From Phellopilus nigrolimitatus (Eukaryota > Basidiomycota > Agaricomycetes > Hymenochaetales > Hymenochaetaceae): DNA of 64,000 nucleotides. The notes beneath the pieces are model-generated. The model was not told the DNA's origin, searched no databases, and saw nothing but the letters and a program-made list of their open reading frames with translations. The stretch spans positions 310,001 through 374,000 of the forward strand of contig JAJOHG010000002.1 of the NCBI GenBank assembly GCA_021029095.1. The letters run 5' to 3'. The first letter of the stretch is position 1, and each line of letters starts with the position of its first letter. Made by a program: the position numbers and the translations under genes. Below are positions 1,082-20,804 of the stretch, piece after piece.

Positions 1082-1206
1082 TGACGTACCATCGGAAGCA
1101 AATATTTTTAGAGCAGCGTCATCGTCAGCCACCGGGCTGGCTGAGGCGGGCAGGAGGCTGGCTGGGAGGCGGGCAGAGAGGCGGGCATCTCCCGAGGAAT
1201 ATAAAA
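1082..1206 (+). promoter_or_regulatory. promoter of array gene A
   Basis: In order it shows a CRE-like TGACGTA (1082-1088), CGGAAGCA (1093-1100) followed by an AT-rich TATTTTTA, a GC-rich run of repeated GGCTGGC/GGCGGGCA and GGGAGG words (about 1133-1186), and TATAAAA at 1200-1206. The same elements in the same order precede several other array genes. The leader that follows is rich in CACACC and contains CTCTTTCAACAACAC, also shared with other members. Confidence 0.65.
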
Positions 1207-1370
1207 AGCGCAGCTTCTTGCTCGTTCAACCCCATCGCTCCTCCGCGACTTCCACAGCTATCTTCTTTGTCTTCGCATCCACACACCCACACCCACACCC
1301 ACACTCGCCAACCAACACACACTCTTTCAACAACACACTCTCTACATCTCAGTGTTTCTACTTGTTCAGC

Positions 1371-3830
1371 ATGCGCTCCTACGTCGTTGCCGCTTTCGTC
1401 TTCGCCATCCTCAGCGGTGGTAACTCTGTCCTCGCTGCCCCAGCCTCTCCCATTCCCGCCGGAGCACCTGCCATCCCGGTCCTTGGCTCGCTTCCGAAGG
1501 CACCTCAGCCGCCCCAGCCACCCCAGCCCCCCAAGCCCCCTGCCGTGCCTTCCGCCCCGGCGTTTAAACGCTACTACGACGACAGTGTCCGTCAGGATGG
1601 CGGTAACAACAACGTGATCAAGAAAACGGGAGTCGACATCCCTATACTTACTCCCTCTACAGGCGGGGAGAACAACAAGAACGGTCCAGGTCCCAGTAAG
1701 CGCTACGTCGACTACAGCTACAACCACAACGGCGGTGACAACAACGTGGTCAAAAACACGGGAGCCAAAGTCCCGGTTCTTAGCCCCTCAGACACGGATA
1801 GCTTCGACAAACGCTACATCGACGAGAGCTACAACCACAACGGCGGCGACAACTCGGTAGTCAAAGGCACGGGAGCCACGGTCCCTGTTCTTAGCCCCTC
1901 AGACAAGGATGGTTTCGACAAGCGCTACATCGACGAGAGCTACAACCACAACGGCGGCGACAACTCGGTAATCAAAGACACAGGAGCCACAGTCCCAATC
2001 GCTAGTCCCGAGTACACGCACGAAAAACGCTACATCAAACACTACTATCAAAATGGCGGTCAGAACTCGCTGATCAAGCTTGGGTCAGCCAAAGTCCCGA
2101 TCCTTAGTCACAAAGACGGAAAGACAGTCGAACGCGTCCGCGTCCACCGGAAGCCGAAGTCTGAACCCGTCCACGGTGATGTGGTGACCGAGTCTGAAGT
2201 CACCAACTCTGAAGACCCCAACGGCGAATGGAAGTCCTACCGTAAGGCACGCAGAGACGTAGACAACAGCTACAACCACGATGGCGTGGTCAGGGATACG
2301 GGATTCGCAGCTCCAGTCGCCAATCCCCCGCGAGGCGCGACCAGCCACACCGATACTCGCGTCTACGCACCGAAGAACGACAACGACCGTGGAGCACGCG
2401 TCAACGGCGATGCCTACAGCGCGCCATACGACAGCAATGCCGACTACAGCAGCAGGCCCTACGGCCACGCCGCCTACAAGCATTACAGCTACGGCAAGCA
2501 CCGCTACGTCGCCCCCCACAATGACGACAGCAGCCTCTTGGGCCTCAACTCAGTCTTAGGTGGTAGCGACGACGGCAACGTCTCCCGGACGCACAGGTAT
2601 GAAGTCCACCACAAGCGTGATGACGCAGACGACGATGGCGATGACGACGACGATGGCAATGACGACGACGATGGCGATGACGACGACAACGTCGAAGAAG
2701 TCCAAGAAGTCCACCACGATGACAACAACTCCGGCCCTCTTGCCAAGGTTAAGGTGCCAATCCAGGTCCCGATCCTTGCAGGCGCAACGCAGGCTGACTC
2801 CAGCTCTGGCTCCGGTTCTGGCACCAGTTCTAAAACCCGCCGCGACGACGTGGACTCATACGGGTACGACTATAGCTATGATAACTCCGACGACGTTGAT
2901 GGCAATGATGACTACAATGGAGACGCCGATGACACCGTTGTCCACGACGAAAACAGCGACAATGTCGACGACGAAGGCAACAACGATGTCGACGACGAAG
3001 GCAACAACGACGTCGACGACGAAGGCAACAACGACGTCGACGACGAAGGCAACAACGACGTCGACGACGAAGGCAACAACGACGTCGACGATGCACAATA
3101 CGACGACGACGCTGACGCAAACGATGATAACGTCAACGATGGAACCTATGTAGACCACGACGATGTCCCCGACGCAGACCACGACGATGTCCCCGACGCA
3201 GAGCACGACGATGTCCCTGATGCGGACCACGACGATGCCCCCGACGACGACAATGTCCCCGACGAAGACGACGACAACGAAGTTGACGATGATGATGACG
3301 ATGACGAAGTTGAGGACGTCGACGACGTCGACGATGACACCAACAACAGCGGCCCGCTCGCCAAGGTCAAGGTGCCGATACAGGTCCCAATCCTCGGAGC
3401 CGCAACAACCGACGACTCCGGCTCTTCGTCGTCCAGTCCTTCTACGACTACGACCACTACACCCGTTCCTCAGACCGGGTCTAAAACCCGCCGCGGTAAC
3501 TTGAAGCGCAGCTACGGCTACGACCACGACATCGACACTAGCAGCGAAACCAGCCCCGACACCAATGACGGGTTGGTTAAGGCTAAGGTGCCGGTCCAAG
3601 TTCCGGTCCTAGGAAGCGCAAACCAGGCCACTTCGAAGAGTGGCAGCAACAAGAAACGCGCCAACATTCATCGTGTATGTGGCCCATTCAGCCCCTGTCG
3701 CAACGGCTCGGCGAGATACAGCCAAGGCTCGGCGAGATACCGCCAAGGCTCGGCGGGATACCGCCACGGCTCGGCGGACTCAGCGGATACGAGAAAAAAA
3801 GCAGGTGTCCTCGACACCATCTTTAACTGA
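1371..3830 (+). CDS. secreted Kex2-type repeat protein, array gene A
   Basis: Single-exon 819-residue protein. The start is the ATG opening MRSYVVAAFVFAILSGG, a signal peptide with likely cleavage after residue 22 and the same start context as genes B-H. After a Pro-rich stretch ending in Lys-Arg at 66-67 come about five tandem units of roughly 35-45 residues, each with a Tyr-rich head, NGGDNxV(V/I)K, TGAxVPVLSPS and usually a closing Lys-Arg. The middle is Asp-rich (DEGNNDVD units). Two NNSGPLAKVKVPIQVPIL blocks and one SYGYDHDIDT block follow, then RVCGPFSPC, a GSARYRQ repeat and the C-terminal GVLDTIFN. Lys-Arg and Arg-Arg sites suggest kexin cleavage in the Golgi and release of several peptides. 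Fungal families with this layout include repellent (Rep1-like) surface peptides, pheromone-like peptides and RiPP precursors, and the sequence does not say which applies. The family itself is not one I recognise. Confidence 0.85.
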   Translation: MRSYVVAAFVFAILSGGNSVLAAPASPIPAGAPAIPVLGSLPKAPQPPQPPQPPKPPAVPSAPAFKRYYDDSVRQDGGNNNVIKKTGVDIPILTPSTGGENNKNGPGPSKRYVDYSYNHNGGDNNVVKNTGAKVPVLSPSDTDSFDKRYIDESYNHNGGDNSVVKGTGATVPVLSPSDKDGFDKRYIDESYNHNGGDNSVIKDTGATVPIASPEYTHEKRYIKHYYQNGGQNSLIKLGSAKVPILSHKDGKTVERVRVHRKPKSEPVHGDVVTESEVTNSEDPNGEWKSYRKARRDVDNSYNHDGVVRDTGFAAPVANPPRGATSHTDTRVYAPKNDNDRGARVNGDAYSAPYDSNADYSSRPYGHAAYKHYSYGKHRYVAPHNDDSSLLGLNSVLGGSDDGNVSRTHRYEVHHKRDDADDDGDDDDDGNDDDDGDDDDNVEEVQEVHHDDNNSGPLAKVKVPIQVPILAGATQADSSSGSGSGTSSKTRRDDVDSYGYDYSYDNSDDVDGNDDYNGDADDTVVHDENSDNVDDEGNNDVDDEGNNDVDDEGNNDVDDEGNNDVDDEGNNDVDDAQYDDDADANDDNVNDGTYVDHDDVPDADHDDVPDAEHDDVPDADHDDAPDDDNVPDEDDDNEVDDDDDDDEVEDVDDVDDDTNNSGPLAKVKVPIQVPILGAATTDDSGSSSSSPSTTTTTTPVPQTGSKTRRGNLKRSYGYDHDIDTSSETSPDTNDGLVKAKVPVQVPVLGSANQATSKSGSNKKRANIHRVCGPFSPCRNGSARYSQGSARYRQGSAGYRHGSADSADTRKKAGVLDTIFN
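2962..3090 (+). repeat. 24-bp in-frame tandem repeat (DEGNNDVD)
   Basis: About five near-identical copies of a 24-base unit (GTCGACGACGAAGGCAACAA plus four bases) inside gene A encode Asp/Glu/Asn-rich octapeptides. Copies differ only at single bases, so expansion looks recent and copy number may vary between strains. Confidence 0.85.
3702..3780 (+). repeat. 21-bp in-frame tandem repeat (GSARYRQ)
   Basis: Slightly more than three copies of a 21-base unit beginning GGCTCGGCGAGATAC lie near the 3' end of gene A, just after the cysteine pair. They encode a basic, Tyr-containing heptapeptide that contrasts with the acidic tract upstream. Confidence 0.8.
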
Positions 3831-3924
3831 TCCGTAGTCTTGTGGTCTTTCTGTCTGCCTGTCTGGTCTGTTCATTTTTGCGTTCTCAATGGTTCTTTAT
3901 CATGGATTGCCTGTACTGCCAGCG

Positions 3925-3985
3925 TGTATACCCGTGCTAGCGCTATCTCGTATAAACACTTTGATTGTGGAGTTCTACTCGATCG
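3925..3985 (+). terminator. conserved 3' flank of array gene A
   Basis: It contains TGTATACCCGTGCT, then CTATCTCGTATAAACAC and a GATTGTGGAGTTCTACTCGA block. The same succession follows the stops of the other array genes, preceded by TGTCTG-rich sequence. It is probably the 3' UTR and polyadenylation region. Confidence 0.5.
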
Positions 3986-4469: not shown

Positions 4470-4921
4470 TGGTGGGTTAGATTTGGGTAGGATTTATCTG
4501 ATTCAATATCTCAGATGGAGAGTGGAACAGTGAGCGAACTTGGATGAAGGCTCACGCTCGGGCCGCATGATGAAGACTGAACATACTATTGAAGCTTTCA
4601 AGTCAGAAGACATCCTTTGATATTATTTCGGGCTATGACTTCAGGGGAGGGACATTTATTATATACGACTTTTTTGTGTGTGGCTGACCTGCGTTGATGG
4701 CGTATCGCGGACTTCTGCGAGTCGGCTCCAGCTCCTTAGTTCTGACTACAGCTCAGATAGTAACCAAGGCGGATGATGTGTTTGTTAGTCGGATACCTTC
4801 GCTTCGCAAAAGAAGGACTCGACGTTCAAGTAATATACCAGCTCCCTGGAGGCGCAGCGCTGTCGCCACTCGTTTACCGTATATGGATTGTGTGAGTAGC
4901 CTCACCGCCTATCGAATTGAG

Positions 4922-6759
4922 TCAGCACACGTTCTCAATTAAAATAATATATACACACTTCGGAGCATCGAGTTTCCTGAAGGTAGAGAGAACAATGTCC
5001 TGGTCATGCCCCTGGTTCACATACTCCGCGCCTGAGCTCGAGTGCGAGCAGTCCAAAGCGCGCAAGTCTCCCCCGACGACGATTGCCTGGTGTCTAATAT
5101 ATTGCTTTCGGATGTTGAGCAGCAGCCGCTGGCTCCAAATACTCGCGTTTGCAATGGCGAACCCGACGAGGATTTCGACGTACTGCCCCTGCATGGACAT
5201 AGCATTAGTGAAACAGATACGACTGGAGGTAGTAAACGGAGACGTACACCGCCAATCAACCATACGAGCTCGTTCGCAAAAAAGGAGGCGAAAACGCTGA
5301 TGGTCCAAATGTGATATACTGAGTTCCGGTAGGAAAAAGGATAAAGTAAATGCGCAGCTTACATGAAAAAGAACAGCACCGAGTCGCGCACGAGGAAGCG
5401 GATCAAGCGGTTCCCCATCCTTGATCCTCGCCGCAGACTCCGAACGCCCTTGTACACGGCGAGGGAGAAAAGCAGCGCCTCATTCACGAGTAGCGGACTC
5501 CAGAACGTCTTGAATGCGTCCGTGACTATCCCTGGCGTACACATGTTCTGATTAAATGAGTCTCCATAGTGATGGAACGTGGCTGGGCAAGGTTGACGCG
5601 AGCGGGGATATCAGTGAGTCTTGTGAAGGCAAATACGAGAATCATTTCCTTTTACTCACCGCCCTCGACCTTCATTATTTTAACTGATATGCCAATCATA
5701 GCGCCAACCGTGCTCGCACACGAGATGATGAGGAGCACAACGATTGTCCAGCTCCGGTCATACATTGCGTAGAGCCGAAGCTGAAGCGTCACTAATCATC
5801 GTCATACGAGTTTGATTTTCCTGCGAAGATGTATAAGAATTGCGAAACGTACTTTCGGCAAAGGCAGCGACAATAATTCCTGCCACCCAGTTCACCCTGA
5901 TCCATGCAGTACCTAAACGTTGTCCCTCCGATTAATCGAGTGTCCAGTGCAAGAAAACCAATCCACCAACAGCTGAAGCATCTCAGCGTTTACGTCACCG
6001 ACAAGGAAGTTTAACTTACAGCTGTAGAACATGCCGTGTCAAAATGTGGATTACGCGATGATCAATCCAGACTCACTTCATGGGACATATTCGATAGACT
6101 CATAACTGGTATGCAAAGACTCGTCAGACGTCCTGTTTTTGAAGCATCCGATTGAACAAAGAATGCTCACCAATATTCAGAAAGCTGCGAAAGGACATAA
6201 ATCAGCTGTGTATGCCTAAAGTACACCTGGATACTCACAGAAGAGTAGCTAGTCCAAAGTATCGATTCTGAAATTCAGTGACAAGTTGCACAAGAATCAA
6301 ATCAAATTCTAGTCAGGAAGTAATGCGGTACGGACCAAGAAGAAGAGAACTTTTCCCGGGCCAAAGGCCGAGCCCTTGAACCGATATGTCAATGCACATC
6401 TTACCGTCGCAAAAAAGCCATGGCTGTACCTACCCACACCAATGTGACTTCCTCATCGAAGGTGATGACTATCGGAGAACGGTCGTCAGTAACGCGTCCT
6501 TCGAGTCTGGGTGTGGCGGGTTAACGCACTATAATCATAGATAAAGGCGGCGAGCGCGGATACTAGTATGTACGCGAAGAAAATCAGCATAAAGAAACGG
6601 ATAAAGAGGAGAGGTAGGTGGTGAGGAGGGGAGGGGGAGGGCCTGCTTACTGTTAACCCACTTCGATGCCTGTATGATTAGAAATGAGGCTTCCAGCGTC
6701 GCGAGCTCCTCGCAAAGGGCCGGCGATAGTCCTGCAGCTATACACGTCGGGTTGGCCAT
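4922..6759 (-). CDS. DUF6533-family multi-pass membrane protein
   Basis: Multi-exon gene. It starts MANPTCIAAGLSPALCEELA, and exons join through short introns to give ASKWVNISALAAFIYDY, IITFDEEVTLVW and GSAFGPGKVLFFLNRYFGL. This is the DUF6533 signature of a membrane helix, an acidic loop and a second helix ending in NRY. Further exons give GTAWIRVNWVAGIIVAAFAE, LRLYAMYDRSWTIVVLLI and IVTDAFKTFWSPLLVNEALL. The last junction uses donor GTACGT near 5250, a CACTAAT branch site and CATGCAG, giving WLIGG-GQYVEILVGF before the tail RLLLNIRKQY. Several hydrophobic helices indicate a plasma or internal membrane protein. These proteins are greatly expanded in Agaricomycetes and their function is unknown. 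It lies within the interval splitting array genes A and B and has a truncated paralogue at 7991-9300. Confidence 0.7.
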
Positions 6760-6869
6760 TTGGGGAGGAGGGCGAAGGCGGGGCTGCCTTGTACGCGCGC
6801 TGGAATCGATGGGCCCCGCAGGGACGAATATTTATATGAGAAATGCTGCCGGGCGTATTCAGCGACAGT

Positions 6870-7930
6870 TCTGATTTTCGAGGAGCTAGGTGTTCTCTGG
6901 AGTTCTTCTTCAGTTTCCTTCTTTTAATTGATTCAATGATAAGCTAGGTTATTCCATATGATATAGCTGTCTGCATCCAAGTTTCACAACCCTTCTAAGA
7001 GATCCGATGGCGAACGAAAATCTTCTACCGAGTACGGTTATAATTTTCGGCAGGCCTTATTGGGATTTTTTTTTGCATTGCAATGTTTGTCGATGCTATG
7101 CACTATGGCATGAGGAATGTTCTGCGCGGTATATAACTGGGCGCTGCCAAGAACATACTTCAAGAATTGATCTGGAGCATGGCCGTCGCGGCCTTGAGCG
7201 AGGAATCGAAGTCTGCTCCCCGCGGCACGAGTATTCATACATGTAGCCTATCCTTCACGGTGGTGATTTCTGGAAATATGACTCTTCAGGGTCAGCAAGC
7301 TAGGTTATCATTCTCTGGACTCACACAGGCGCGTGATCAATTTTCTTTCAATCGAACTCACCGACGTCGTCGGGGTGTGCTCTTTCAAGCCATCAGAATA
7401 GCTCTGGAAATTACTCGAACAACGGTCAGATCTAAAGAGTATCATGTGTGGCAGCTTGGTTGCCATGGTAATAGAAAGCGAGTGTGGATTCGGAAGCGAG
7501 TGGAAGGTAATCAAAGGTGACGCGTCTGGAAGTGTCTAAATCAGTAACTTATCCAGTCCGCCTGTAATGTGCGCCACCAGGAAAAAGACGCCAAAAACTG
7601 TCTATCAAGTACGTATTTTACGTTCATCATATGCGTCTAAAGCAAAGATTCTGCCGAATAAAACATTCATGTCACCTTTTTTGTGTGGAAAACGCGGACG
7701 GTTCCAATCTAGGGGTGGTGACCAATCTGTGGTTCCCGATAGTGGCACCCGCTGCCGATCATCTTCGGCAGTATTTACGTGCATTGATTCAAGGGTACCT
7801 CTACGCACCAAGACCTTTTGTATCTCGGTATGCAGTCGCTCTCTAGGTCGCAACAGCTCCAACGCTTGTTCTTTATAGTACAACCAGCACGTCACCTTAA
7901 GAGACCGATCTTATACATGCGCATAGCATT
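6870..7930. other. intergenic between the DUF6533 copies
   Basis: Unique sequence between two related minus-strand DUF6533 segments. Several short open frames are present without recognisable domains. Similarity between the flanking copies begins again near 7930. Confidence 0.4.
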
Positions 7931-7990: not shown

Positions 7991-9300
7991 TCAGTGCTCA
8001 ATAACATCATCTGAATTAGTGTATACACACTTGTAAGTATCGAGTGTCCTGAAAGTCGCGAGCACAGTGTCGTGGTCGTTACCTTGGCTCATTCCAAATC
8101 TCGAATGTGAGTAGTCGATAACGAGCAAGTCTCCCCAGACGGTGATTGCCTCATGTATCGCTTCCGAATGTTCAGCAACAACCTCTGGTTCCAGATACTC
8201 GCATTCGCGATGGCTAAACTGACGAGAACTTCGGTGTACTGCGGCTGCATTCTCGTTGAAGAGAGCTCGAGTCAACGAGACAGATCGGGTGGGTTGTCAC
8301 AGACGGAGAGGACACATACGCCACCAATTGACAACACGACCTCATTCGCGAGAAAGGTGGCGAAAACCCTGATGCGCAAGATGCGAATTTTCTTAAAATC
8401 GATAGGAAATGAGCGAAGGAAAGGTGCGGCGGCTCTCTTGAAGAAAAATAGAACAGAATTGCGTGCGAGGGAGCGGATCAAACAGTTCCCCGTCCGGAAT
8501 CCTCTCTCGGGAGGCCCTTGTACGCGGCAAGCTCAAAGAGTAGCGCCTCGTTCACGAGCAGTGGGGCCCAGAACGTTTTGAACGAGTTCGGGAGTGTCTT
8601 GCGGATGCACATGTTTGGGGGGAAATCGTCACCGTAATATAGAGATACGGCTGGGAAATCAGCCCGCGTAAAATATTCTCAAACACAAGATATGTCAGGC
8701 AGTCAACATGCCTATTGCGAAGTTTTACGCTAAAATTGTGCTTGTACTCACCGTCTTGCGCTTCCATTAATTTTAAGAGATACAGAGCATGGCAGCCACC
8801 GTGGTCGCAAACGACAAGACGAGGAGCACAAGGATCCTCCGGGTCCGGTCGTACATTGCATAGAGGCGAAGCTGGAGTGGCACTAATCATCGTTGTGTGG
8901 GTCTGAGTCCTCTCGAGAGAAGATATTAGAATGGCGACACGTACGTTCGGCGAAGACAGTGGAAATAATTCTCCTGCTATCCAGTTCACCCTGATCCATG
9001 CTGTACCTAAGCGACGCCCCTCGATCAATCAAGTTGGCAGCGCAAGAAGAACAGTACACCAACGACTGAGACGAAGTATACGTCTCAGAATTGAGGTCAA
9101 GACCATTGACAAACGGGAATTCGACTTACAGCTAAAAAGGGAACATATAATGTGAGAAAATGGATCGTGTGGCGCTCACCACACTCACTTCAGTAGATAC
9201 ATGTGGTAGACACATAACTAGAACACAGGCGACCCCTTGTCAATCCCCCATCCTTTCAACCAATCGACGGAACAGAAAAAGGCTGACTAGCGTTTATAAA
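7991..9300 (-). pseudogene. N-terminally truncated DUF6533 paralogue
   Basis: The segment parallels the 3' two-thirds of the gene at 4922-6759. It has matching exons LQLRLYAMYDRTRRILVLLV, GTAWIRVNWIAGELFPLS, FATFLANEVV and PQYTEVLVSLAIANASIW, and the tail RLLLNIRKRYMR. The last intron is conserved (GTATGT to GAATGCAG). The exons carrying the DUF6533 signature and start are missing: upstream of about 9300 the sequence no longer resembles the paralogue. The donor after the first surviving exon reads GTCAGC instead of GTGAGC. It is most likely a partial tandem duplicate that no longer makes a full protein. A new short start at about 9028 cannot be excluded. Confidence 0.6.
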
Positions 9301-10590
9301 ACTGCGAGAAAGCAGCATCTCAGCTAGCTCTGTGTCTGCCCTCATCTGCCGCAAAAAAAGAGTGATGTGCAGCCTCGTCCGAAACCCGATGTATTTGCAA
9401 ACTCTATCAGCTCAATGCGACAGTTGGTAGGGGGGACGGCCGAGCTGCCTTCTTGGATGGACTGGGTGGTCGACCTGCGCAGCACAGCGGCGTCCGGGTC
9501 GAGAGCGAACAGACGGACATGCAGAGTTTACTCCATAACGACAATGCACTACTAGTCGCGCACGCGCCTCTAGGCCCCAGCTCCCGATGTTCCTTTCAAG
9601 ACACCTGAGATGATCTCGTTGCTGGGAGCTGATGCGCATTGGAAGGAAAAGATACCGGTTGAAGCTCGAAACCAGATCTAAAGAGTTCCTTCCGGGATCT
9701 GCGCCTGGATCTAGCTATCTAGATTTATTTTAGAAGGTCTATTCAATCTTTAGGCCCGCTTGTAGTGAAGACCTGAGACACGCCTTAAGCTTTTGAATTT
9801 TGAGCATCGACGGAAATGGCAGAAAAGAGGTAAATACATCTTTTTCTTGTGCCTTCACTAAAAGGGAAGCTAGTTACCGAAATGGAAGTTGCAGTGCGTT
9901 ACTAAGCACACCATGTAAGGAAAGAGCTTGAAAACTCATGTCAGCAAATCGCCTTTCATGAACTCCAATTAGACGCCCTTCCGTTTCTGGTGGGAGACAG
10001 AGATATTGTAGTATTAGTAGGGTTAGACCTTGTATCACAGATTCGAGAGCGACCCCGGCAGAATCCATCAGAGCCGATCGCTGGCCAACCGTTGAAACAA
10101 TACAACTCAAATTCGACATTCATAATCCAGTCATCGCAGGGCTTGTCGTACATGTGTTCAACCATTGTTTCTCGATTTCATGCGAACTCTGCAGCGTCTA
10201 GCGCTGCCATTGTTTCAAGTTTTCAGCTATAAGAAATACGCGGGAACAGCAATTGCTGTTTCTTACGGCCATTTGGTAACCTTAGGGTGGTGGGACTTCC
10301 AGCCGGTAGAAATCATGATCTGCGAGTGACAAGAGTGGCAGACGCGTGTGCATTGTACATGTAGCTGAGGCTGACACCGGTGCCGTGGGCAAGAGTGGCC
10401 GGGCGTTGTAGCTGGAGGCTGACGTTAACACCGTGACTCGCACGGTATGGCTGGCAGCGGGAGCTCGATCGCGCTGGCTACACTCGTGTCGGAGGGGCAA
10501 AAAGCAATTCGGGCTCATGAAAGGAATTTGAGACGGTCAGAGGAAATGGTACTTTAGATAGATAAGATAAGATTCCTGGAATGGACCAAC
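9301..10590. other. intergenic, no gene recognised
   Basis: No supported gene. GCGCTGCCATTGTTTCAA near 10202-10219 also occurs near 17709, upstream of gene F, and a partial match occurs near 13374, upstream of gene C. The duplicated units therefore extended beyond the core promoters. Confidence 0.4.
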
Positions 10591-10594
10591 AGAG

Positions 10595-10771
10595 TGACGT
10601 AAAATGTTCGGAAGCAACTATTTTTAGATGCATACTGGAATGGAAGACGCGAACCCCAGTCAGCCATTGGTACTGTGCGGCTGGCTGAGCTGGCGAGGCT
10701 GGCGGGGAGGCTGGCAGGAAAGCTGGCAGAGAGGCTGACAGGGAGGCTGGATGGCCTCGAAGAGTATAAAA
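10595..10771 (+). promoter_or_regulatory. promoter of array gene B
   Basis: TGACGTA (10595-10601), CGGAAGCA (10609-10616) with a following TATTTTTAG, repeated GGCTGGC/GGGAGG words (about 10680-10750) and TATAAAA (10765-10771). Element order and spacing match gene A. Confidence 0.65.
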
Positions 10772-10900
10772 TGCCCCTCATTCTGCTCCTTTCTCCTTAT
10801 CGCTCTGCGACCAACATCCCCCACACACATCTACTATTCCTACATTCCTTCTACAACACATTAATAGCTCTGCGCCTTAGTGCTCGTATACTCATCCACA

Positions 10901-12877
10901 ATGCGCTCCTACGTCGTTGCTGCCTTCGTGTTCGCCATGCTCAGCGGCAGCACCCCCGCCCTCGCTGTTCCCACTGGGCTGCTTAAGTCCCCCGCCGCGT
11001 TCCCCGGGGCCGGCGCTCCCTCCCTGGCGGCGTCCAGACGCTCCATCGACAACAGCTACAACCACGATGGCGGCGACAACAACGTGATCGAGGGCACGGG
11101 AGTCAATGCGCCAATTGTCAGTCCCTCGTATAACGACCGCCTCGGGAAACGTCGAGCCTACGATGTGTACAGGCACGAGGGCGGCGACAATTCCCTGATC
11201 AGGAATGCGCCAATCTCCGTCCCAATCATCGGTACCACAGGCGATGGCGGGGCTAAGAACATCTACCAGCGCACTGTCTACGAGCAAGATGGTGGCGACG
11301 ACAACTTGGTCAGGAATGCGCCAATCCTCATCCCAATCATTGGTACCACAGGCGACGGCGGGGCTAAGAACATCTACGGGCGCACTGTCTACGAGGAAGA
11401 TGGTGGAGACGATAACTTGGTCAGGAATGCGCCGATCGCTATCCCAATCGTTGGTACCACGGGCCATGGTGGTGCGGAGGACTACCACTACCGGCGCAAT
11501 GTCTACGAGCAAGATGGTGGCGACGACAACTTGGTCAGGAATGCGCCGATCGCTGTCCCGATCGTTGGTTCCACGGGCCATGGTGGTTTGGAGGACTACC
11601 ACTACCGGCGTGCGGCGCGCAGCGTCGACCGCAACTACGTTCACGACGGCGGCGACAACTCCGCGCTCGACGGTCCGGTAGTCGCAGTCCCAGTCGTTGG
11701 TAGTGACCGGAAGTACCGGTCTGGGCGCCCCCACCGCGGCGAACGCACCGACGTCTATCAAAACGGCGGCAAGAACTCGATAGTCAAGACTGGGTCGCTC
11801 GCCGTCCCGATCGTTAGTCACGAAACACGCGCAGTCCGCGGTTGGAAGCGCGACGAGACAGTCTACCACGACCACGAGGAGACAGTCCAGCGCAACGACG
11901 ACTACGACGGCGACAATGGCGACGGATTGCCTGTGTTTGTGGCTGGCGCCGCCGCCGGATTCGCTGGCCAAAACAACGATGACGCATCCGGAGACCGTTA
12001 CAAGCGCGACGAGACAGTCACCCGCCACGACGAGACAGTCCACCGCTACGACGACTACGACGACGACAATGGCGACGGATCGCTTTTCCCTGCGCCTTTC
12101 GCTGCGGCTGCCGCCGGATTCGCTGACAAGAACAGCGATTACGCATCCGGAAACCGCAACAAGCGCGACGACACAGTCTACCACCACGACGAGACAGTCT
12201 ACGACGAGGACAGCGACAACGGCGACGAGACAGTCGTCTACCGCTACAAGTCCAGCGGTTACGCATCCGGAAACCACGTCAAGCGCGACGAGACAGTCTA
12301 CCACCACGACGAGACAGTCTACGGCGACGACAACGGCGACGCGACAGTCGTCCACCACTACAACAGCAACGACAACAGCGGTCCGATCGCCAAGGCTGAC
12401 GTGCCAATCCAAGTCCCAATTCTCGGAGCCGCGACCACTGACAACGCCGGGTCCGCTTCCAAGGAACGCCGCAATGTCTTGAAGCGCAGCTACGGCTATG
12501 ACCGCGACATTGACACTTCCGACGAAACCAGCCCCGACCCCGGCAACGGACTAATTGCCGCTAAGGTGCCGATCCAAGTCCCGATCCTTGGAGCCGCAAC
12601 CACGGACGAGAGCAAGTCGAGCTCCAAGCGCAAGCGCGACTGCGTAAGCGACGCCGAGCGCACATATTATCGCAACGACTGCTACGGCACTTACGTCAAC
12701 CAAGATGAGAACTCCAAGACGGTCGTCCGCCAGTACGATGCTAGGCCCACCGAGACGGTCGTCCACGAATACGATGCTAGGCCCACTGAGACGGTCTATG
12801 CGGGTCCAAGGCCAACGAACTACCGCTATGTAGACGACCACGAACAGAAGGGCGTCGCCGGCACCATTCTGTCTTGA
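10901..12877 (+). CDS. secreted Kex2-type repeat protein, array gene B
   Basis: Single-exon 658-residue paralogue of gene A. The start MRSYVVAAFVFAMLSG is a signal peptide ending near ALA. The mature region begins with an Arg-Arg site and at least six tandem units of roughly 40-50 residues with a Tyr head, (D/E)GG(D/K)(D/N)N, V(R/K)NAPI and xVPI(I/V)G. These are separated by Lys-Arg, Arg-Arg or single Arg. The middle has DETVYHHDETVY-type His/Asp/Thr units, each preceded by Lys-Arg. The C-terminal part carries two VPIQVPILGAATT blocks, LKRSYGYDRDIDT, the separated cysteines RDC and NDC, a repeated YDARPTETV and the end GVAGTILS. It resembles a multi-peptide precursor cut by kexin. The SYGYD-DIDT and VPIQVPILG blocks are nearly identical to A, so A and B are the closest pair among the large members. 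Confidence 0.85.
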   Translation: MRSYVVAAFVFAMLSGSTPALAVPTGLLKSPAAFPGAGAPSLAASRRSIDNSYNHDGGDNNVIEGTGVNAPIVSPSYNDRLGKRRAYDVYRHEGGDNSLIRNAPISVPIIGTTGDGGAKNIYQRTVYEQDGGDDNLVRNAPILIPIIGTTGDGGAKNIYGRTVYEEDGGDDNLVRNAPIAIPIVGTTGHGGAEDYHYRRNVYEQDGGDDNLVRNAPIAVPIVGSTGHGGLEDYHYRRAARSVDRNYVHDGGDNSALDGPVVAVPVVGSDRKYRSGRPHRGERTDVYQNGGKNSIVKTGSLAVPIVSHETRAVRGWKRDETVYHDHEETVQRNDDYDGDNGDGLPVFVAGAAAGFAGQNNDDASGDRYKRDETVTRHDETVHRYDDYDDDNGDGSLFPAPFAAAAAGFADKNSDYASGNRNKRDDTVYHHDETVYDEDSDNGDETVVYRYKSSGYASGNHVKRDETVYHHDETVYGDDNGDATVVHHYNSNDNSGPIAKADVPIQVPILGAATTDNAGSASKERRNVLKRSYGYDRDIDTSDETSPDPGNGLIAAKVPIQVPILGAATTDESKSSSKRKRDCVSDAERTYYRNDCYGTYVNQDENSKTVVRQYDARPTETVVHEYDARPTETVYAGPRPTNYRYVDDHEQKGVAGTILS

Positions 12878-13032
12878 GGTCTGTAGTTTCGTGGCCTTTC
12901 TTGTCTGCGGGGTGTCTGTTTCTGTCTCGTCTGTTCACTGCTGTCTGTCTGGTTCCGTCTGGTGTCCGTTGTTGTCTTGTCTGTTCATTGCTCTGGCTGT
13001 TTTCTTTTTTTTAATTGGGGCTGCATGTGCTG

Positions 13033-13100
13033 TGTATACCCGTGCTATTCGCTATTGCTATATTGCTATCTTAATAAATGCTTTGATTGTGGGGTTTTAT
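13033..13100 (+). terminator. conserved 3' flank of array gene B
   Basis: TGTATACCCGTGCT, then AATAAATG and CTTTGATTGTGGGGTTTTAT, parallel to the flank of gene A. TGTCTG/TCTGTC repeats fill the preceding 130 bases. Confidence 0.5.
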
Positions 13101-13109
13101 TCGATTGCG

Positions 13110-13740
13110 CTCTAGTAAGCTGGTGCCTGACATAAAACGCGATTATTATTTTTTGAAAACTCAGTCGTACTTGAATTCCGAATCGGCACCGGAAACATGA
13201 TCGACAGCAACGTGTTTACAAAGATCGGCGCGGAGATGGTCGACGCCGTCAGCCACCGGTCCGCCGCAAGAACACCGTCATCTGGAAGGAAGCAACATAT
13301 CACGGCTCGTTCCTCTTCTCTGCAAACGCCCAGCCACTTTTGTTCATTCTCAGTGCGATCTCTGCAGCATATCGCGCTGCCATTCAAGTCCGAACTGCGA
13401 GAAGTGCACGTGACCGGCGTTTGCGACGATCGCCGTCTCCTTCCGGGGGAAGGTGCGTTTACTTTCATTCTTTCTCCATTTCCTATCCCTTCGACATACT
13501 GGGACGACCCTCCCCCGCGCCATCCTGACGATCGTCTCTAAAATAAATCATAGCTTGGCCACTCAGTGTCTTCATAAGGAAAGGTTCAGCTATTCGTACG
13601 TCAAGTCATTGGTTACATATATTACCTGCTGCATTGAAATCTGTCGCGTCCAATCTTGCGTCCAATCGCTCTAGATCGTCTAGTCCATAATTAAAGCAAC
13701 ATGCTTTTTTCTGGACGGATCCGAACTGTACTCTAGAGAA
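13110..13740. other. intergenic between B and C
   Basis: No gene supported. It contains diverged copies of spacer sequence also present before F, G and H, including a CCATCCTGACGATCGTCTCTAA-like block matched near 17789. It is consistent with duplication of entire units. Confidence 0.4.
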
Positions 13741-13747
13741 ATATCTG

Positions 13748-13867
13748 CGGAAGCACGCGCAGATCCAGGATGCGAAGCAGCATCATTGTCAGCCTCAGCC
13801 AGCCACCGCTGAGGGCTGGCAGAGGCGGGCACTGCGGCTGGCTGACAGCGCCCCGAGGCCCTTAAAG
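13748..13867 (+). promoter_or_regulatory. promoter of array gene C
   Basis: CGGAAGCA at 13748-13755 and GGCTGGC/GGCGGGC words near 13810-13845 are present. A CRE-like site is absent, and the TATA position is degraded to CTTAAAG (about 13861-13867). The leader keeps CACTCTTTCGACAACAC. Confidence 0.5.
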
Positions 13868-13998
13868 TCCCTCCTCCCCATTCACCCCCCCTCCGCCTCC
13901 TTGCAACCTCAGCAACCTTCTCCACGTACGTCTACCCACACTCTTTCGACAACACACACTCTTTCCGTATCTCATCGCTCGCACCGCACCGATCCACC

Positions 13999-14663
13999 AT
14001 GCGCTCCTACGTCGTCGCCGCCTTCGTCTTCGCCATCCTCAGCGGGGGCACGCAGGTCCTCGCTGCGCCGGCGCCTCCCTTCTTCGGGCTCGGGCCCGTC
14101 GTCCCCGCGCCGGCGCAGAGCGCGCCTGAAGGCCGCCACAGCGGCAACGGCAATATACACCGTTTTGGCCCCAGAGAGGCACCGGTCGACGCGCCGATCG
14201 CGTTCCCGTTCTTTAAGTCTGCGGGCTTGGCCCAGGCGGACGGCGAGCACGGAGCGCGCCGCGGTGGCCTGAGCGGCCGCGGCGTCGCCTTCGAGCACGG
14301 CATCGACACGAGCCGCACGACTAACAACCCGTTCGCGGCGATCCCGCTCTTCGCATCGCCGAGCACCCAGAAGGCGGGAAAGACTGCGGCCGGAGCTCCT
14401 GGACCCGTGTCTGCGCCCTCGTCCAAGCGCCGCCACCGCGACCATAGGCACGACGGCCGCGGCAGACGCGGCCTTACATTCGAGCACGGCGTCGACACGA
14501 GCCGCGAGACCAACAACCCGTTTGCGGCGATCCCGCTCTTTGCGAACAACCAGAACGCGGGCAAGCCTGCCGCGGCGGCTGCTGTGCCCGCGTCGAAGGC
14601 CACGTCTAATCGCCGCCGCAGCGTCTACAAGCGCAATGATGACGATGACAACGATGATGACGA

Positions 14664-14711
<48 letters not shown>

Positions 14712-15004
14712 TGATGACGACGACGACTACGACTACGACTACGACTACGATGACGGCGACGTTCTGAAGCGCGATGGCTGTACCAGTTCCGGCGACGCCA
14801 TGCGACTTTTACCGCGACGACGCCTGCGTGAGCTCTGGAGACCCTGAGAGGCCTGCCGTAGCGGACTATCGCGTGGAGCACGACAGGCCCACGTACCATT
14901 ACCAAGAGAACTACGAGGGGGACGGCGTTGAAAGCCACGACGACTACGACCATGAAGATCATGCGCGTGAGGGCGTCTTCGGCTCGCTTCTGGATGGCCT
15001 GTAG
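13999..15004 (+). CDS. secreted array gene C, split by a +1 frameshift
   Basis: It starts MRSYVVAAFVFAILSGG, nearly identical to gene A. The mature part has two copies of a unit R-G-(V/L)-(A/T)-FEHG(I/V)DTSR-x-TNNPFAAIPLFA followed by basic sites (KRR, RRR, KR), then a long Asp/Tyr tract and KRDGCTSSGDA. The frame then ends at 14847. The family C-terminal half lies one frame over: skipping the A at 14800 gives CDFYRDDACVSSGD and continues to 15004, ending REGVFGSLLDGL. Alignment with gene B (RDC..DA..YRNDC) places the shift in the cysteine region. It is either a one-base insertion (mutation or assembly error) or frameshifted translation. No credible GT-AG intron bridges it. Confidence 0.65.
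14636..14755 (+). repeat. GAC/GAT microsatellite (poly-Asp)
   Basis: A perfect (GAC)14 run at about 14668-14709, flanked by GAT/GAC and TAC/GAC repeats, encodes poly-Asp then Asp-Tyr in gene C. Slippage here could change tract length by whole codons. Confidence 0.85.
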
Positions 15005-15764: not shown

Positions 15765-16193
15765 ATGCGCTCCTTCATCGCCGCCGCCACCCTCTTCATC
15801 GCCCTCCTCAGCGGTGGCACCGCCGTGCTCGCCGCCCCGCGCGCCCCCGTGTCCGCGCCCATCTCCGGCGGGCCGCCTGCCAACCCCCTCGTCCTGCTCG
15901 GCGGGCTGCCGAAGCAGCAGCAGCAGCGCGCCAGGGCCACTATCCCGCTCCCGCTCGCGCAAAAGCGTGACTACCCCGGCCCCGGCGACGACCGCGAGGA
16001 CTCCGTCGAGCAACGCTACCCCAGCCCCTTCGCCAGCGACAGCAGCAGCTACAGCGACTGCACCGGGGACGACTGTGTCCAGTACGACGGTGTATACCAT
16101 CACGCAGACACGAACAGGCCCGTGGCACACACGGACAGGCCCGTGGAACACCATGCCGGACCCAAGAGCGTCCTCGGTAACCTTGTTGATTGA
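15765..16193 (+). CDS. small secreted protein, array gene D
   Basis: 142-residue single-exon paralogue. The signal peptide MRSFIAAATLFIALLSGG ends near VLAA. It is followed by a Pro/Ala-rich start (APVSAPISGG), a Gln run and AQKRDYPG, which contains the Kex2-type Lys-Arg. A Ser/Asp region holds the close cysteine pair SDCTGDDC. Two NRPVAHTDRPVEHH-like units precede the C-terminal PKSVLGNLVD. It is much shorter than A and B because the tandem peptide units are absent. Both ends and the cysteine pair are retained, which helps define the minimal family architecture. Confidence 0.8.
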   Translation: MRSFIAAATLFIALLSGGTAVLAAPRAPVSAPISGGPPANPLVLLGGLPKQQQQRARATIPLPLAQKRDYPGPGDDREDSVEQRYPSPFASDSSSYSDCTGDDCVQYDGVYHHADTNRPVAHTDRPVEHHAGPKSVLGNLVD

Positions 16194-16242
16194 TCCACAG
16201 CACGTGCGACCTTTCTGTCTGTATGGCGTTTATTTCTGTCTC

Positions 16243-16270: not shown

Positions 16271-16328
16271 ATTAAACTGTTGCGTGCTGGATGGTTCTCT
16301 ATGGTGGATTGCATGTACTCTGTATAGT

Positions 16329-16607: not shown

Positions 16608-16674
16608 CTGAGGCTGGCAGGGAGGCTGGCAGGGAGGATGGCAGGGAGGCTGGCAGCACTCGAGGAGTATAAAA
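16608..16674 (+). promoter_or_regulatory. promoter of array gene E
   Basis: Four tandem (G)GCTGGCAGGGAGG words lead to TATAAAA at 16668-16674. No CRE-like site or CGGAAGCA is seen upstream. The leader keeps CACTCTTTCGAACAACACTC. Confidence 0.6.
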
Positions 16675-16842
16675 TGCGACTCCTCCAGCTCCTTCCTCCC
16701 CATCGCTCCTCCGCGACTACCTCTCCCATCTGCCCTTTCCCTCCACATCCCTACACCCACACGCGCACTCGCCACCCTAAACACTCTTTCGAACAACACT
16801 CGCTCTACGTCCTCGCGCTTCTACCTACCCACCCAAGTCACC

Positions 16843-17322
16843 ATGCGCTCCTTCGCCCTCGCCGCGCTCCTCCTCGCCGTCCTCAGCGGCGCCGTCCCCG
16901 CGCTCGCCACGCCCGCGGGCCCCGTCTCCGCTCCCGGACCCGTTTCCGCGCCGGCCCTCCCCGTCTTCGGGAGCAACCCGCTCAAGGCGCGCACCTGGTG
17001 GCGCCGGCCCTGGTTCCGCGGCGGCGACGACCACTGGGGCCACAAGGGCGACAACAACGTCGGCAACGACATTAGCGGGAGCGGCAACAGCGTCACCGGG
17101 AACAACAACCACAGGCGCAGCGACGGCTACGTCGAGTGCGGCGAGCACTGCTACAGAGGCGACGCAGACTACGACGTCGACAATGATGGGCACGGCACCG
17201 ACTACGAGACACACGACGCGTACTATGAAGACGACGCCCCCGCGGCCTACGACAACGACAACGATAACGACGACGACGACGACTCGCACAGAGCCAGCAT
17301 CATCGATACCATTTTCAAGTGA
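16843..17322 (+). CDS. small secreted GDN/acidic protein, array gene E
   Basis: 159-residue single-exon member. The signal peptide MRSFALAALLLAVLSGAVPA is followed by PVSAPGPVSAPALPVFG. A Trp/Arg/Gly patch (RTWWRRPWFRGG) leads into HKGDNNVGNDISGSGNSVTG, a GDN/GNN pattern ending in NNNHRR. Then come the close cysteine pair ECGEHCYRGD, an acidic Tyr/Asp tail and the C-terminal SIIDTIFK. It is strikingly similar to gene F through the first 100 or so residues and in its flanks, so the two are a recent duplicate pair diverging in the acidic tail. Confidence 0.8.
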   Translation: MRSFALAALLLAVLSGAVPALATPAGPVSAPGPVSAPALPVFGSNPLKARTWWRRPWFRGGDDHWGHKGDNNVGNDISGSGNSVTGNNNHRRSDGYVECGEHCYRGDADYDVDNDGHGTDYETHDAYYEDDAPAAYDNDNDNDDDDDSHRASIIDTIFK

Positions 17323-17970: not shown

Positions 17971-17974
17971 AGCT

Positions 17975-18032
17975 ACTGCTGAGGCGGGCAGGGAGGCGGG
18001 CAGGGAGGCAGGCAGCCCTCAGGAGTATAAAA
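17975..18032 (+). promoter_or_regulatory. promoter of array gene F
   Basis: GAGGCGGGCAGGGAGGCGGG repeats and TATAAAA at 18026-18032. The leader is nearly the same as that of gene E. Confidence 0.6.
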
Positions 18033-18200: not shown

Positions 18201-18713
18201 ATGCGCTCCTTCGCCCTCGCCGCGCTCCTCCTCGCCGTCCTCAGCGGCGCCGTCCCCGCGCTCGCCGCACCCGCGGGCCCCGTCTCCGCGCCCGGCCCCG
18301 TTTCCGCGCCGGCCCTCCCCGTCTTCGGGAGCAGCCCGCTCAAGGCGCGCACCTGGTGGTGGGGTCACCGCGGCGGCGACGACCGCTGGGGCCACAAGGG
18401 CGACAACAACGTCGGCAACGGCATCAGCGGAAACAACAACAGAGTCACCGGGAACAACAACCACAGGCGCGCCGATGGCGCCGTCGAATGCGACGGGGAC
18501 TGCTACAGAGGCGACGCCGACTATGACAGCGACACCGTTGACTATGATAGAGACGGCGCCGACTATCATAGCGACACTGTCGACTATGATAAGGACGACG
18601 TCGACTACGACGGGGACGACACGTACAATGGAGACGGCGAGTATGTCGCCCCCGCGGCCTCCGACGACCGTGTGCACCGTGAACCGGGCCTCTTCGATAC
18701 CATTTTCAACTGA
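18201..18713 (+). CDS. small secreted GDN/acidic protein, array gene F
   Basis: 170-residue single-exon paralogue of E. The N-terminal half is nearly the same (MRSFALAALLLAVLSGAVPA, ALPVFGSSPLKARTWW, HKGDNNVGNGISGNNNRVTG). The cysteine pair is ECDGDCYRGD. The acidic tail differs from E by repeated YDSDTVDYDRDG-type units, and the C-terminus is GLFDTIFN. The GDN/GNN stretch could form a short repetitive beta structure, which is inference. Position, strand and promoter tie it to the array. Confidence 0.8.
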   Translation: MRSFALAALLLAVLSGAVPALAAPAGPVSAPGPVSAPALPVFGSSPLKARTWWWGHRGGDDRWGHKGDNNVGNGISGNNNRVTGNNNHRRADGAVECDGDCYRGDADYDSDTVDYDRDGADYHSDTVDYDKDDVDYDGDDTYNGDGEYVAPAASDDRVHREPGLFDTIFN

Positions 18714-19434: not shown

Positions 19435-19896
19435 ATGCGCTCCTCCGTCGCCGCCGCCCTCTTCCTCGCCATCCTGAACGGCGCCATCTCCGCACTCGCC
19501 GAGCCCGTGCGCCCCGTCCTTGGTGGCGGTGCGCTCAGGGCGGGCACCTCCAGGCCCCGGCCCCGACCCCGGCGCGACGCAGTCGCCAGCGAGAGCCGCA
19601 ACGGCGACAATAGCGTCGGCGTGACCAGCTACGGGCACGGCGACGGCTTCTGCCGCGTCAGCGCCAGCGGGGCCGCCCCCGGCCGCGGGCGCGCCGGGGA
19701 CGGCAGCGACTGCGGCGCGAACTGCAGCGAGGACGCGGTCTACCCTAATGGCGATGCGGGCGGCTGCGACGATGGCCGCGCGGCCTTCGGGTCTGGGGAC
19801 TATCGCGGGGAAAGCTATCGAGGAAACGGAGAGTATGACGGGCCCGAGGACCATGACCGCCATGCGCAGGAGGGCGTCCTCGATACCATTTTATGA
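19435..19896 (+). CDS. small secreted cysteine-containing protein, array gene G
   Basis: 153-residue single-exon member. The signal peptide MRSSVAAALFLAILNGAISA is followed by an Arg/Pro run with Arg-Arg-Asp. Next come RNGDNSVGVTSYGHGDGFC, which keeps the GDNSV core of the family, a Gly/Arg-rich stretch and the cysteine pair SDCGANCSED. One more cysteine (GGCDDG), a Gly/Tyr/Asp tail and the C-terminal GVLDTIL complete it. The signal peptide has diverged from A-C but the same layout is retained. Gene H is its closest relative. Confidence 0.75.
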   Translation: MRSSVAAALFLAILNGAISALAEPVRPVLGGGALRAGTSRPRPRPRRDAVASESRNGDNSVGVTSYGHGDGFCRVSASGAAPGRGRAGDGSDCGANCSEDAVYPNGDAGGCDDGRAAFGSGDYRGESYRGNGEYDGPEDHDRHAQEGVLDTIL

Positions 19897-19998
19897 TCGA
19901 TTCGTCGTGTCTGCCGCCTTTCTATCTTGTTCTGTTGAGTGTCTTGCTGCATTCTGGCCTGTGATGGTTCTTTGTTGTGGACCGCATGTCCTGCCAAT

Positions 19999-20065
19999 TG
20001 TATACCCGTGCTTTGAATGTCTCGTAAAAATGCTTTTGCTGAGGAGTTCTGCTCGACCGCCCGCC
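19999..20065 (+). terminator. conserved 3' flank of array gene G
   Basis: TGTATACCCGTGCT, TGTCTCGTAAAAATGC and TTTGCTGAGGAGTTCTGCTC. No such block follows gene H. Confidence 0.5.
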
Positions 20066-20233
20066 CGTAAGCCTCTGTCTACGCAGAGCTCCCTTCATCA
20101 CCTCGGGATGACTCCTGGCGACTACCGCTACATCATCGCTCGAGGTCATTTCTAAAGACTCAAGAAGTTCTTCTATTCAACGTCATTATGCAAAGCAATA
20201 AGCAGCACAGACCCGAGGTTCCCGGCTACGAAC

Positions 20234-20342
20234 CGGAAGCACTTTCGTGCACATCAACGGTGCAGGTGCGAAGCACTGTTATTTTCAGCCTTGGCCACCG
20301 TCGCGGCTGACAGGGAGGCGGACGGCGCTCGAGGGCTATAAG
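20234..20342 (+). promoter_or_regulatory. promoter of broken array gene H
   Basis: CGGAAGCA at 20234-20241, GGCTGACAGGGAGGCGGAC near 20305-20323 and TATAAG at 20337-20342. The copy kept its promoter although the coding part is damaged. Confidence 0.5.
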
Positions 20343-20476
20343 ATGCCGCCTCCTCCAGCCTCCTCCCCATCGTTCCTTCGCAACCTCCGCAACCGCCCCT
20401 CCGCTCCCCTTCCCTACGCTTGCGCGCACCGGCCGATTTACACTCTTTCGAGCGACATTTGCATTACCCACCTACC

Positions 20477-20804
20477 ATGCGCTCCTTCGCCATAGCCGCA
20501 CTCTTCCTTTCCATTCTCAGTTCTGCGTTCGCTACGCCGGTGCTCCCCATCCTCGTGGGCGCACTCGGAGCGCGCCTTCTGGCCCCGAACCCGGCCTCGG
20601 CGCGACGGCGTCGTCAGCGAGAGCTGCAACGGCGACAACAGCGTTGGCGTGACCAGCTACGGGCGCGGCGGCGGCGGTTTCTGCCGCATTAGCGGGACTG
20701 GCGCCGACCGCGGGCGCGCCGGGAACGGCAGTGACTTGCTCGTTCTGCAGCTGTACCCGAGTTTGTTCGCACGTGAAGCTCCTGTTTTCCGGACTATAAC
20801 ATAA
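20477..20804 (+). pseudogene. array gene H, frameshifted and truncated
   Basis: It begins with an intact signal peptide (MRSFAIAALFLSILSSAFA). The open frame then runs into an Arg-rich stretch and stops at 20692. One frame over, the sequence reads RDGVVSESCNGDNSVGVTSY and GFCRISGTGADRGRAGNGSD, matching gene G almost residue for residue, so a small indel lies near 20600. After GNGSD the match to G ends: the cysteine pair, the C-terminal motif and the 3' flank are gone, and the shifted frame stops at 20804. This is the right edge of the array. Confidence 0.7.

What the first reader, a model, noticed from the sequence alone, without database searches (positions are those of the whole stretch)
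1082..20804. Array of eight secreted paralogues with fixed ends and wildly variable middles
Genes A-H all lie on the plus strand. They share a near-identical signal peptide (MRS[YFS]..A..[FL].A[IM]L.G), a Pro/Ala start of the mature chain, GDN motifs, a cysteine pair and a C-terminal hydrophobic motif. Lengths run from about 140 to 819 residues and the middles are repeat-driven. I do not recognise the family. This looks like a fast-evolving secreted peptide system made by tandem duplication of whole transcription units.
Basis: partly seen in the sequence, partly recalled or inferred. Interest (0 to 1): 0.85.

Follow-up and report, generated by a model that had tools for sequence, protein, structure and literature searches.

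The report
Tandem array of secreted peptide precursors
In a wood-rotting fungus, a row of duplicated genes shares the same switches and the same protein ends but carries different middles, and the longest ones look like precursors that the cell would cut into many small secreted peptides, a known type of fungal product in a family not matched elsewhere in this search.

Summary
The window is from Phellopilus nigrolimitatus (Hymenochaetales). Seven secreted paralogues without visible introns, plus one relic (H), lie head to tail at 1082-20804. All eight start with an MRS[YFS] signal peptide. Upstream and downstream DNA and a C-terminal motif are shared beyond shuffled controls in most pairs, so duplication of whole transcription units is supported. 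A second haplotype (contig C95) carries the array. Coding indels mostly keep frame, allelic dN/dS is below 1 in each gene, and one gene-conversion tract links E and F. The middles of D-G do not align with those of A and B. C is frame-broken in the window but open on C95; A is the reverse.

A and B meet the published criteria for Kex2-processed repeat proteins (KEPs); C has only two similar units; D-G fail. A's core unit is 37 residues including KR.

Best reading: a lineage-restricted KEP array making secreted linear peptides, in build nearest to Ustilago Rep1/Hum3 (surface-active coat peptides). Processing is inferred; function is not shown. Interest is moderate: orphan KEP families and expansions are known.

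The parts
1082..1370 (+). upstream region of gene A, presumed promoter and 5' leader (TATA-like box, GAGGCTGGCAGG-type 12-bp repeats)
1371..3830 (+). gene A, 819 aa, secreted precursor with 11 [KR]R sites (3.4 expected); allele on C95 has a 1-bp frameshift
1572..2030 (+). gene A: GGDN cassettes, four KR-delimited units of 35-44 aa (37-aa core, 111-bp tandem repeat)
2619..3659 (+). gene A: acidic region with three VPIQVPILG-type cassettes ending at dibasic sites
10590..10900 (+). upstream region of gene B, presumed promoter and 5' leader
10901..12877 (+). gene B, 658 aa, secreted precursor with 13 [KR]R sites (5.2 expected)
11042..11851 (+). gene B: seven GGDN cassettes, some separated by a single Arg instead of a dibasic site
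11852..12472 (+). gene B: four DE/DD-TV-type units, 40-62 aa, KR/RR delimited; the last also holds a VPIQVPILG motif
12488..12631 (+). gene B: final DTS/VPIQVPILG unit, KR delimited
13999..14847 (+). gene C, 282-aa open frame in the window; two KR/RR-delimited similar units; the C95 allele is open for 332 aa
14804..15003 (+). C-terminal part of gene C in a shifted frame (family C-terminus GVFGSLLDGL)
15765..16193 (+). gene D, 142 aa; the only member found in the protein collection (P0001, with a different 3' gene model)
16843..17322 (+). gene E, 159 aa; its C95 allele carries a gene-conversion tract from F matching window 16837-17091
18201..18713 (+). gene F, 170 aa
19435..19896 (+). gene G, 153 aa; on C95 a 2-base difference at the end shifts the stop
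20477..20804 (+). H: relic of a G-like copy; 71-aa open frame, then the homologous part in another frame; no shared 3' region

Best explanation
[quoted passage not shown] Its long members (A, B and, less fully, C) have the build of Kex2-processed repeat proteins, probably grown by internal amplification of cassettes. Proposed mechanism: the signal peptide sends the precursor into the secretory pathway; kexin in the late Golgi cuts after KR/RR; carboxypeptidase trims the basic residues; about ten linear peptides per precursor are exported (9 of 12 fragments in A and 7 of 13 in B are 35-75 aa). Ten of 12 A fragments have one short V-P-[IV]-hydrophobic motif beside a polar, Tyr/Asp/Asn-rich part. 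The short members D-G are exported nearly whole, carrying the same ends and cysteines. Shown: sequence architecture, shared flanks and ends, frame conservation, P-domain coding in the genome. Inferred: signal function, cleavage, export, direction of evolution and peptide function. Most likely function (about 35%): peptides that assemble on hyphal or fruit-body surfaces, as Rep1 repellents do.
For: [KR]R sites are enriched over composition shuffles in A (11 vs 3.4, p=0.0002), B (13 vs 5.2, p=0.0004) and C from C95 (9 vs 2.6, p=0.0008). A and B each give 11 usable fragments; A has similar groups of 6 and 3, and B a chained group of 9 (three unit types by eye); both exceed the 15% length rule (criteria read). 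In A the ten VP motifs fall one each in 10 of 12 fragments (p=0.0003). Kexin-type P-domain coding occurs on two contigs and DPPIV_N (Ste13-type) on two. Frame-keeping coding indels and pooled dN/dS 0.44 (p=8e-7) indicate real, constrained frames. Gene conversion between E and F: 22 consecutive informative alignment columns in the C95 allele of E, 16 of them base differences and the rest gap columns, matching window 16837-17091, against 4 scattered single columns outside. Rep1 (652 aa; Kex2 peptides of 35-53 aa plus one of 228 aa; amyloid-like) and Hum3 (828 aa; 31-36-aa repeats) are close in build (passages of PMC4617103); six fragments each in A and B are 34-55 aa and A has one of 217 aa.
Against: D, E, F and G have no significant dibasic enrichment and fail the KEP criteria. 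The one-motif-per-fragment rule does not hold in B (6 of 13 fragments, p=0.73) or C (3 of 7, p=0.51). Hydrophobic blocks within single fragments are mostly not significant (p<0.05 in A 1 of 10, B 2 of 9, C 1 of 4, the C case being a poly-Asp fragment with no hydrophobic block), so amphipathy is weak. There are no expression, peptide or knockout data. AlphaFold2 models are of low confidence (F pLDDT 42; B N-terminal half pLDDT 45 with repeated beta strands), and no fold match reached E 0.001. No sequence of Rep1 or Hum3 was available for comparison. The P-domain hits were not checked to belong to a full kexin.
Confidence: 0.7

Rival explanations
1. Intact acidic, disordered secreted matrix or wall proteins. 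The dibasic sites are incidental or cut little, and the cassettes act as a multivalent chain (metal or polysaccharide binding, or tyrosine cross-linking).
For: Very acidic stretches (one A fragment has net charge about -81), Tyr/Asp-rich repeats, four members without Kex2 enrichment, a disordered low-confidence model of F.
Against: Dibasic sites are enriched in A, B and C and sit at unit borders in A and B; in A the unit period equals the site period.
Confidence: 0.2
2. Signalling, antagonistic or defensive peptides aimed at other organisms in dead wood, diversified by competition, rather than coat peptides. This shares the KEP processing of the best explanation.
For: Paralogue diversity and gene conversion. 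Vogt et al. saw no apparent phenotype for knockouts of six KEPs in Coprinopsis under axenic conditions and suggest biotic roles (PMC9769878: introduction, first part of results and discussion read).
Against: Allelic dN/dS is below 1 for each of seven genes. Many predicted peptides are long and acidic, unlike typical short cationic antimicrobials (recalled). No enzyme or receptor partner was recognised, though only selected open frames of the window were scanned.
Confidence: 0.3
3. A dikaritin-type RiPP cluster: Tyr-containing cores are cyclised by UstYa-type enzymes after Kex2 cutting.
For: Kex2 repeats with Tyr in many units; the genome has 17 UstYa (PF11807) matches.
Against: None of the 17 lies on C112 or C95. 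Similar units are about 35 aa or longer. In Umemura's survey such neighbours accompany 103 of 1680 basidiomycete KEPs (passage of PMC7329392).
Confidence: 0.05

Closest known systems
Kex2-processed repeat proteins (KEPs; Le Marquer 2019, Umemura 2020, Vogt 2022)
   Same: Signal peptide, several similar units between KR/RR sites in A and B, no Pfam domain; lineage-specific and multi-copy types are known (one Peniophora strain has 20 copies; passage seen).
   Different: Only two of seven non-relic members meet the definition. Short non-repeat paralogues share flanking DNA, signal peptide and C-terminus. A carries two and B three unit types by eye; the survey found 77 of 1193 KEPs with two types and 2 with three.
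Rep1 and Hum3 repellent-type precursors of Ustilago maydis
   Same: Total size, unit length, Kex2 borders and, in A as in Rep1, one fragment of over 200 aa (PMC4617103 passages).
   Different: No sequence comparison could be made. Amphipathy here is weak. Here the genes form an array with short members.
Chaplins of Streptomyces (PF03777)
   Same: Resemblance recalled from memory only: GN/DN followed by VPVxVPV-like motifs in surface amyloids.
   Different: No match of PF03777 in this genome at E<=10; none of the 14 control genomes was over the cut-off either, so the search had no strong positive control. None to A or B in Pfam at E<=10.
Dikaritins (ustiloxin-type RiPPs)
   Same: Kex2-cut repeat precursor.
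   Different: No UstYa match on either contig of the locus; units (about 35 aa and more) are much longer than ustiloxin B, a cyclic peptide of five residues (passage of PMC7329392, gives the gene cluster; the residue count is partly recalled).

Membership tests
KEP (genes A and B) | N-terminal secretion signal, no membrane protein | tested here: inconclusive
   Typical signal peptide by eye (MRSYVVAAFVFA[IM]LSG...LA). SignalP and TMHMM were not available; no Pfam match over cut-off.
KEP (genes A and B) | At least 4 fragments after cutting at KR/RR, C-terminal piece dropped | tested here: met
   A 11, B 11
KEP (genes A and B) | At least 3 similar fragments, at least 15% of the protein | tested here: met
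   A groups of 6 (25.6%) and 3 (18.3%); B chained group of 9 (52%). Similarity by shuffled local alignment instead of FIMO
KEP (gene C) | At least 3 similar fragments | tested here: not met
   2 similar fragments in the C95 copy
KEP (genes D, E, F, G) | At least 4 fragments | tested here: not met
   1, 2, 1 and 1 fragments
KEP (genes A and B) | Kex2 protease in the organism | tested here: met
   PF01483 over cut-off on contigs C79 and C555; whether each belongs to a full kexin was not checked
KEP (genes A and B) | Actual release of peptides | not testable with these tools
   needs mass spectrometry
Rep1-type repellents | Kex2-bordered units of about 34-55 aa in a precursor of about 650 aa (drawn) | tested here: met
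   B 658 aa with 6 of 13 fragments of 34-55 aa; A 819 aa with 6 of 12
Rep1-type repellents | Amphipathic units | tested here: inconclusive
   p<0.05 in 1 of 10, 2 of 9 and 1 of 4 fragments of A, B and C
Rep1-type repellents | Amyloid-like, surface-active fibrils | not testable with these tools
   needs synthetic peptides
Rep1-type repellents | Sequence homology to Rep1 | not tested
   no sequence at hand; paper PMC2666566 not held
Alpha-pheromone-type KEPs | Ste13 signature XA/XP after the Kex2 site | tested here: not met
   0 of 11 post-site starts in A, 1 of 12 in B
Dikaritins | UstYa/DUF3328 gene beside the precursor | tested here: not met
   17 matches in the genome, none on C112 or C95
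Chaplins | PF03777 domain | tested here: not met
   no strong positive control
Hydrophobins | Eight-cysteine pattern (as in the abstract of PMC2253510) / Pfam match | tested here: not met
   2-4 cysteines; no hydrophobin model among the Pfam matches

The most novel reading that the evidence does not exclude
The array is a living series of KEP birth. A compact secreted protein with a fixed promoter, leader, signal peptide and C-terminus (D-G type) was duplicated, and some copies acquired and multiplied Kex2-bordered cassettes (C, then B and A), while gene conversion moves the variable GDN-bearing part between neighbours. The released GGDN-VPIL units stack as beta-arch fibrils: a fungal coat made of many non-identical peptides that converged on repellents and chaplins.
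Probability: 0.25. Interest if true: 0.65.

Novelty: new variant of a known kind. Interest (0 to 1): 0.45.

Why it matters
KEPs are widespread in fungi and mostly of unknown function. Here Kex2-repeat precursors and short non-repeat proteins sit side by side with the same flanks and ends, in two haplotypes, so the steps from a plain secreted protein to a multi-peptide precursor could be reconstructed. A and B taken alone would be just two more lineage-restricted KEPs.

Tried and rejected
Homologues elsewhere: B alone (none at E<=0.001), a six-row alignment of D, E, F, G and the C95 alleles of E and F (only gene D's own record from this species) and the N-terminal parts of A, B and B's allele (none at E<=1). 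C was not searched. This is weak evidence of absence: only about 8000 best word-sharing candidates were scored each time, and none of the searches returned a record of A, B, E, F or G themselves, so gene models of such genes are evidently missing or different even for this genome. No fungal nucleotide collection beyond this genome could be searched.

Chaplin membership (a resemblance from memory) was tested and not supported. Dikaritin maturation was tested and not supported. Solved structures: no match for A3 and one at E 0.47 (Ninjurin-1, taken as chance) for A2, both at E<=1. Foldseek with the B model: 126 matches at E<=10, none at E<=0.001; in the 50 rows shown TM is at most 0.22, not taken as evidence. 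Gene-like stretches on the minus strand between A and B: no Pfam match over cut-off to the open frames tried. Very fast allelic evolution: not supported. Weak genome matches away from the locus: 2 with G and 8 with C at E 0.001-1; some carry stops, most with C cover its poly-Asp region, and one with G (C243, E 0.83) does neither; not followed.

Choices in counts: E was left out of the C-terminal test (close to F) and H was not used. C was taken from C95 in protein tests because the window frame is broken. Noncoding indels were counted in the six intervals A-B to F-G; the C-D interval begins at the window's early stop of C and so includes C's shifted tail. The G-H interval (38 indels, 33% substitutions), H, the two 5' blocks and the right flank were left out. 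27 of the 46 noncoding indels are in the very diverged B-C interval; without it in-frame noncoding indels are 2 of 19. The VP motif was defined after looking at the sequences, so its raw excess is not an independent test. The informative-site count for E/F includes gap columns unless stated.
Full report
Source and setting. The window is positions 310001-374000 of a contig (C112) of a 56.4-Mb genome in 635 contigs; C112 is 2,267,646 bases long. The one annotated protein found from the array is named Phellopilus nigrolimitatus, on a contig of exactly that length; the species is a Hymenochaetales basidiomycete, listed as saprophytic on gymnosperms with a 56.7-Mb genome (passage of PMC10410303). 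To the right of the array lies an MmgE/PrpD-type gene.

The genes. Eight plus-strand starts give open frames of 819, 658, 282, 142, 159, 170, 153 and 71 aa. Whole-genome searches with B and F match only here and on contig C95. Searches with G and C do so for every strong match and add 2 and 8 weak matches elsewhere at E 0.001-1. A's upstream DNA matches only these two contigs (8 matches). C95 is a 50.9-kb contig, read as the second haplotype: it matches in three long blocks at 95-97% identity.

Are they one family? The upstream 330 bp match at z>=5 in 24 of 28 pairs, and the downstream 330 bp in 20 of 21 pairs among A-G and 0 of 7 with H. The upstream alignment shows a TATA-like box in seven of eight (C is the exception) and a pyrimidine-rich leader. 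The C-terminal eight-residue motif is significant when small offsets are allowed (0 of 2000 random sets reach it) and less so without offsets (39 of 5000 with E, 374 of 5000 without E). A Pro/Ala-rich block after the signal peptide is reached by 1 of 100 shuffled sets. In contrast, cassette profiles from A and B do not find D, E, F or G, and C only weakly. So the ends and flanks are shared, and the middles mostly cannot be aligned. GDN[NS]V, defined on A and B, recurs in E, F and G with chance 0.1-0.3% each; E and F are not independent.

Are they real genes? Indels between haplotypes keep frame in 7 of 10 cases inside A-G and in 7 of 46 in the six intervals counted (Fisher p=0.0012). Pooled allelic dN/dS is 0.44 (64.5 synonymous and 94.5 non-synonymous changes, p=8e-7), with A 0.28, B 0.65, C 0.31, D 0.16, E 0.40, F 0.50, G 0.91. 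A neighbouring open frame (gene status untested) has 0.51; a PrpD exon with only four changes gives 0.34. Three frameshifting differences exist: one in A (C95 broken), one in C (window broken), and one at the stop of G; each could be a null allele or a sequence error. H is decayed in both. On C95, E carries an unbroken run of 22 F-type informative columns (16 of them base differences, the rest gap columns) matching window 16837-17091, nearly all inside its coding region and flanked by E-type sites, with only 4 single F-type columns elsewhere among 220: gene conversion.

Kex2 architecture. Dibasic [KR]R sites are about three times (A, C) or two and a half times (B) as frequent as expected and not significantly enriched in D-G. 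In A they border units such as 37-aa Y-x-x-x-SYNHNGGDN-[NS]-V-[VI]-K-...-A-[TK]-VP-[VI]-...-KR. By the published KEP rules (methods section of PMC6339444), A and B pass the fragment and repeat tests, C has only two similar fragments, and D-G fail. In A each of ten VP motifs has its own fragment (10 of 12 fragments, p=0.0003), but B (6 of 13, p=0.73) and C (3 of 7, p=0.51) do not show this; in B some GGDN units are separated by a single Arg. Vogt et al. report products that appear to come from cuts after single Arg in some KEPs (first part of results). Kexin-type P-domain coding is present on two contigs, DPPIV_N on two, and UstYa on neither contig of the locus.

What it may do. By architecture the nearest characterised systems are Rep1 (652 aa; 10 peptides of 35-53 aa and one of 228 aa; amyloid-like surface fibrils) and Hum3 (828 aa; 31-36-aa repeats) of Ustilago maydis, as given in passages of PMC4617103. 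A low-confidence AlphaFold2 model of B's GGDN region shows strands repeating with each cassette (pLDDT 45, pTM 0.48), while F is nearly unstructured (pLDDT 42). Repeat proteins tend to give such models (recalled), and no fold match was significant, so this is a hint only. Amphipathy is weak fragment by fragment. I put coat or assembly function at about one third, signalling or antagonism about the same, and unprocessed matrix protein at one fifth.

Novelty. Umemura counted 7878 KEPs, 2560 of them stand-alone without homologues (abstract passage), and noted expansions such as 20 copies in one Peniophora strain, so an orphan multi-copy KEP family is not in itself new. What I did not see described in what I read is a tandem array in which KEPs and short non-repeat proteins share flanks and ends. 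This rests on paper searches and on reading parts of three KEP papers: methods and passages of PMC6339444, passages of PMC7329392, and abstract, introduction, the first part of results and the discussion of PMC9769878. It is not a full literature check. The search for Hymenochaetales with KEX2 and secreted gave 0 papers in the held library.

Noticed in passing
window 10695-10750, 16610-16656, 17981-18015, 1133-1187: 12-bp tandem repeats of the GAGGCTGGCAGG type just upstream of the TATA-like box in genes A, B, E and F; possibly a shared regulatory array with copy-number changes.
   Followed up: partly
window 4900-6900 and 8000-9500, minus strand: Two similar gene-like stretches between A and B, about 77% identical over some 320 bases (5649-5970 and 8741-9063), apparently multi-exon with hydrophobic pieces; no Pfam match over cut-off to the open frames tried. 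By memory they recall fungal seven-helix membrane proteins.
   Followed up: partly
window 16177-16200 (gene D): The public gene model of D (P0001) seems to remove an implausibly short intron of 24 bases and so skips the conserved C-terminus (one search read); the annotation of this locus looks unreliable.
   Followed up: partly
window 12878-13998: The B-C intergenic stretch differs between haplotypes by 11.7% with 27 indels, far more than the A-B, C-D, D-E, E-F and F-G intervals at 1-4%; an old allele or imported segment.
   Followed up: no
window 19906-20557: The G-H interval and the 5' half of H are very different between haplotypes (33% in 19897-20476), as if one haplotype had a different copy there.
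   Followed up: no
window 14641-14761: A GAC/GAT run encodes a poly-aspartate stretch in C that differs in length by 9 bases between haplotypes.
   Followed up: partly
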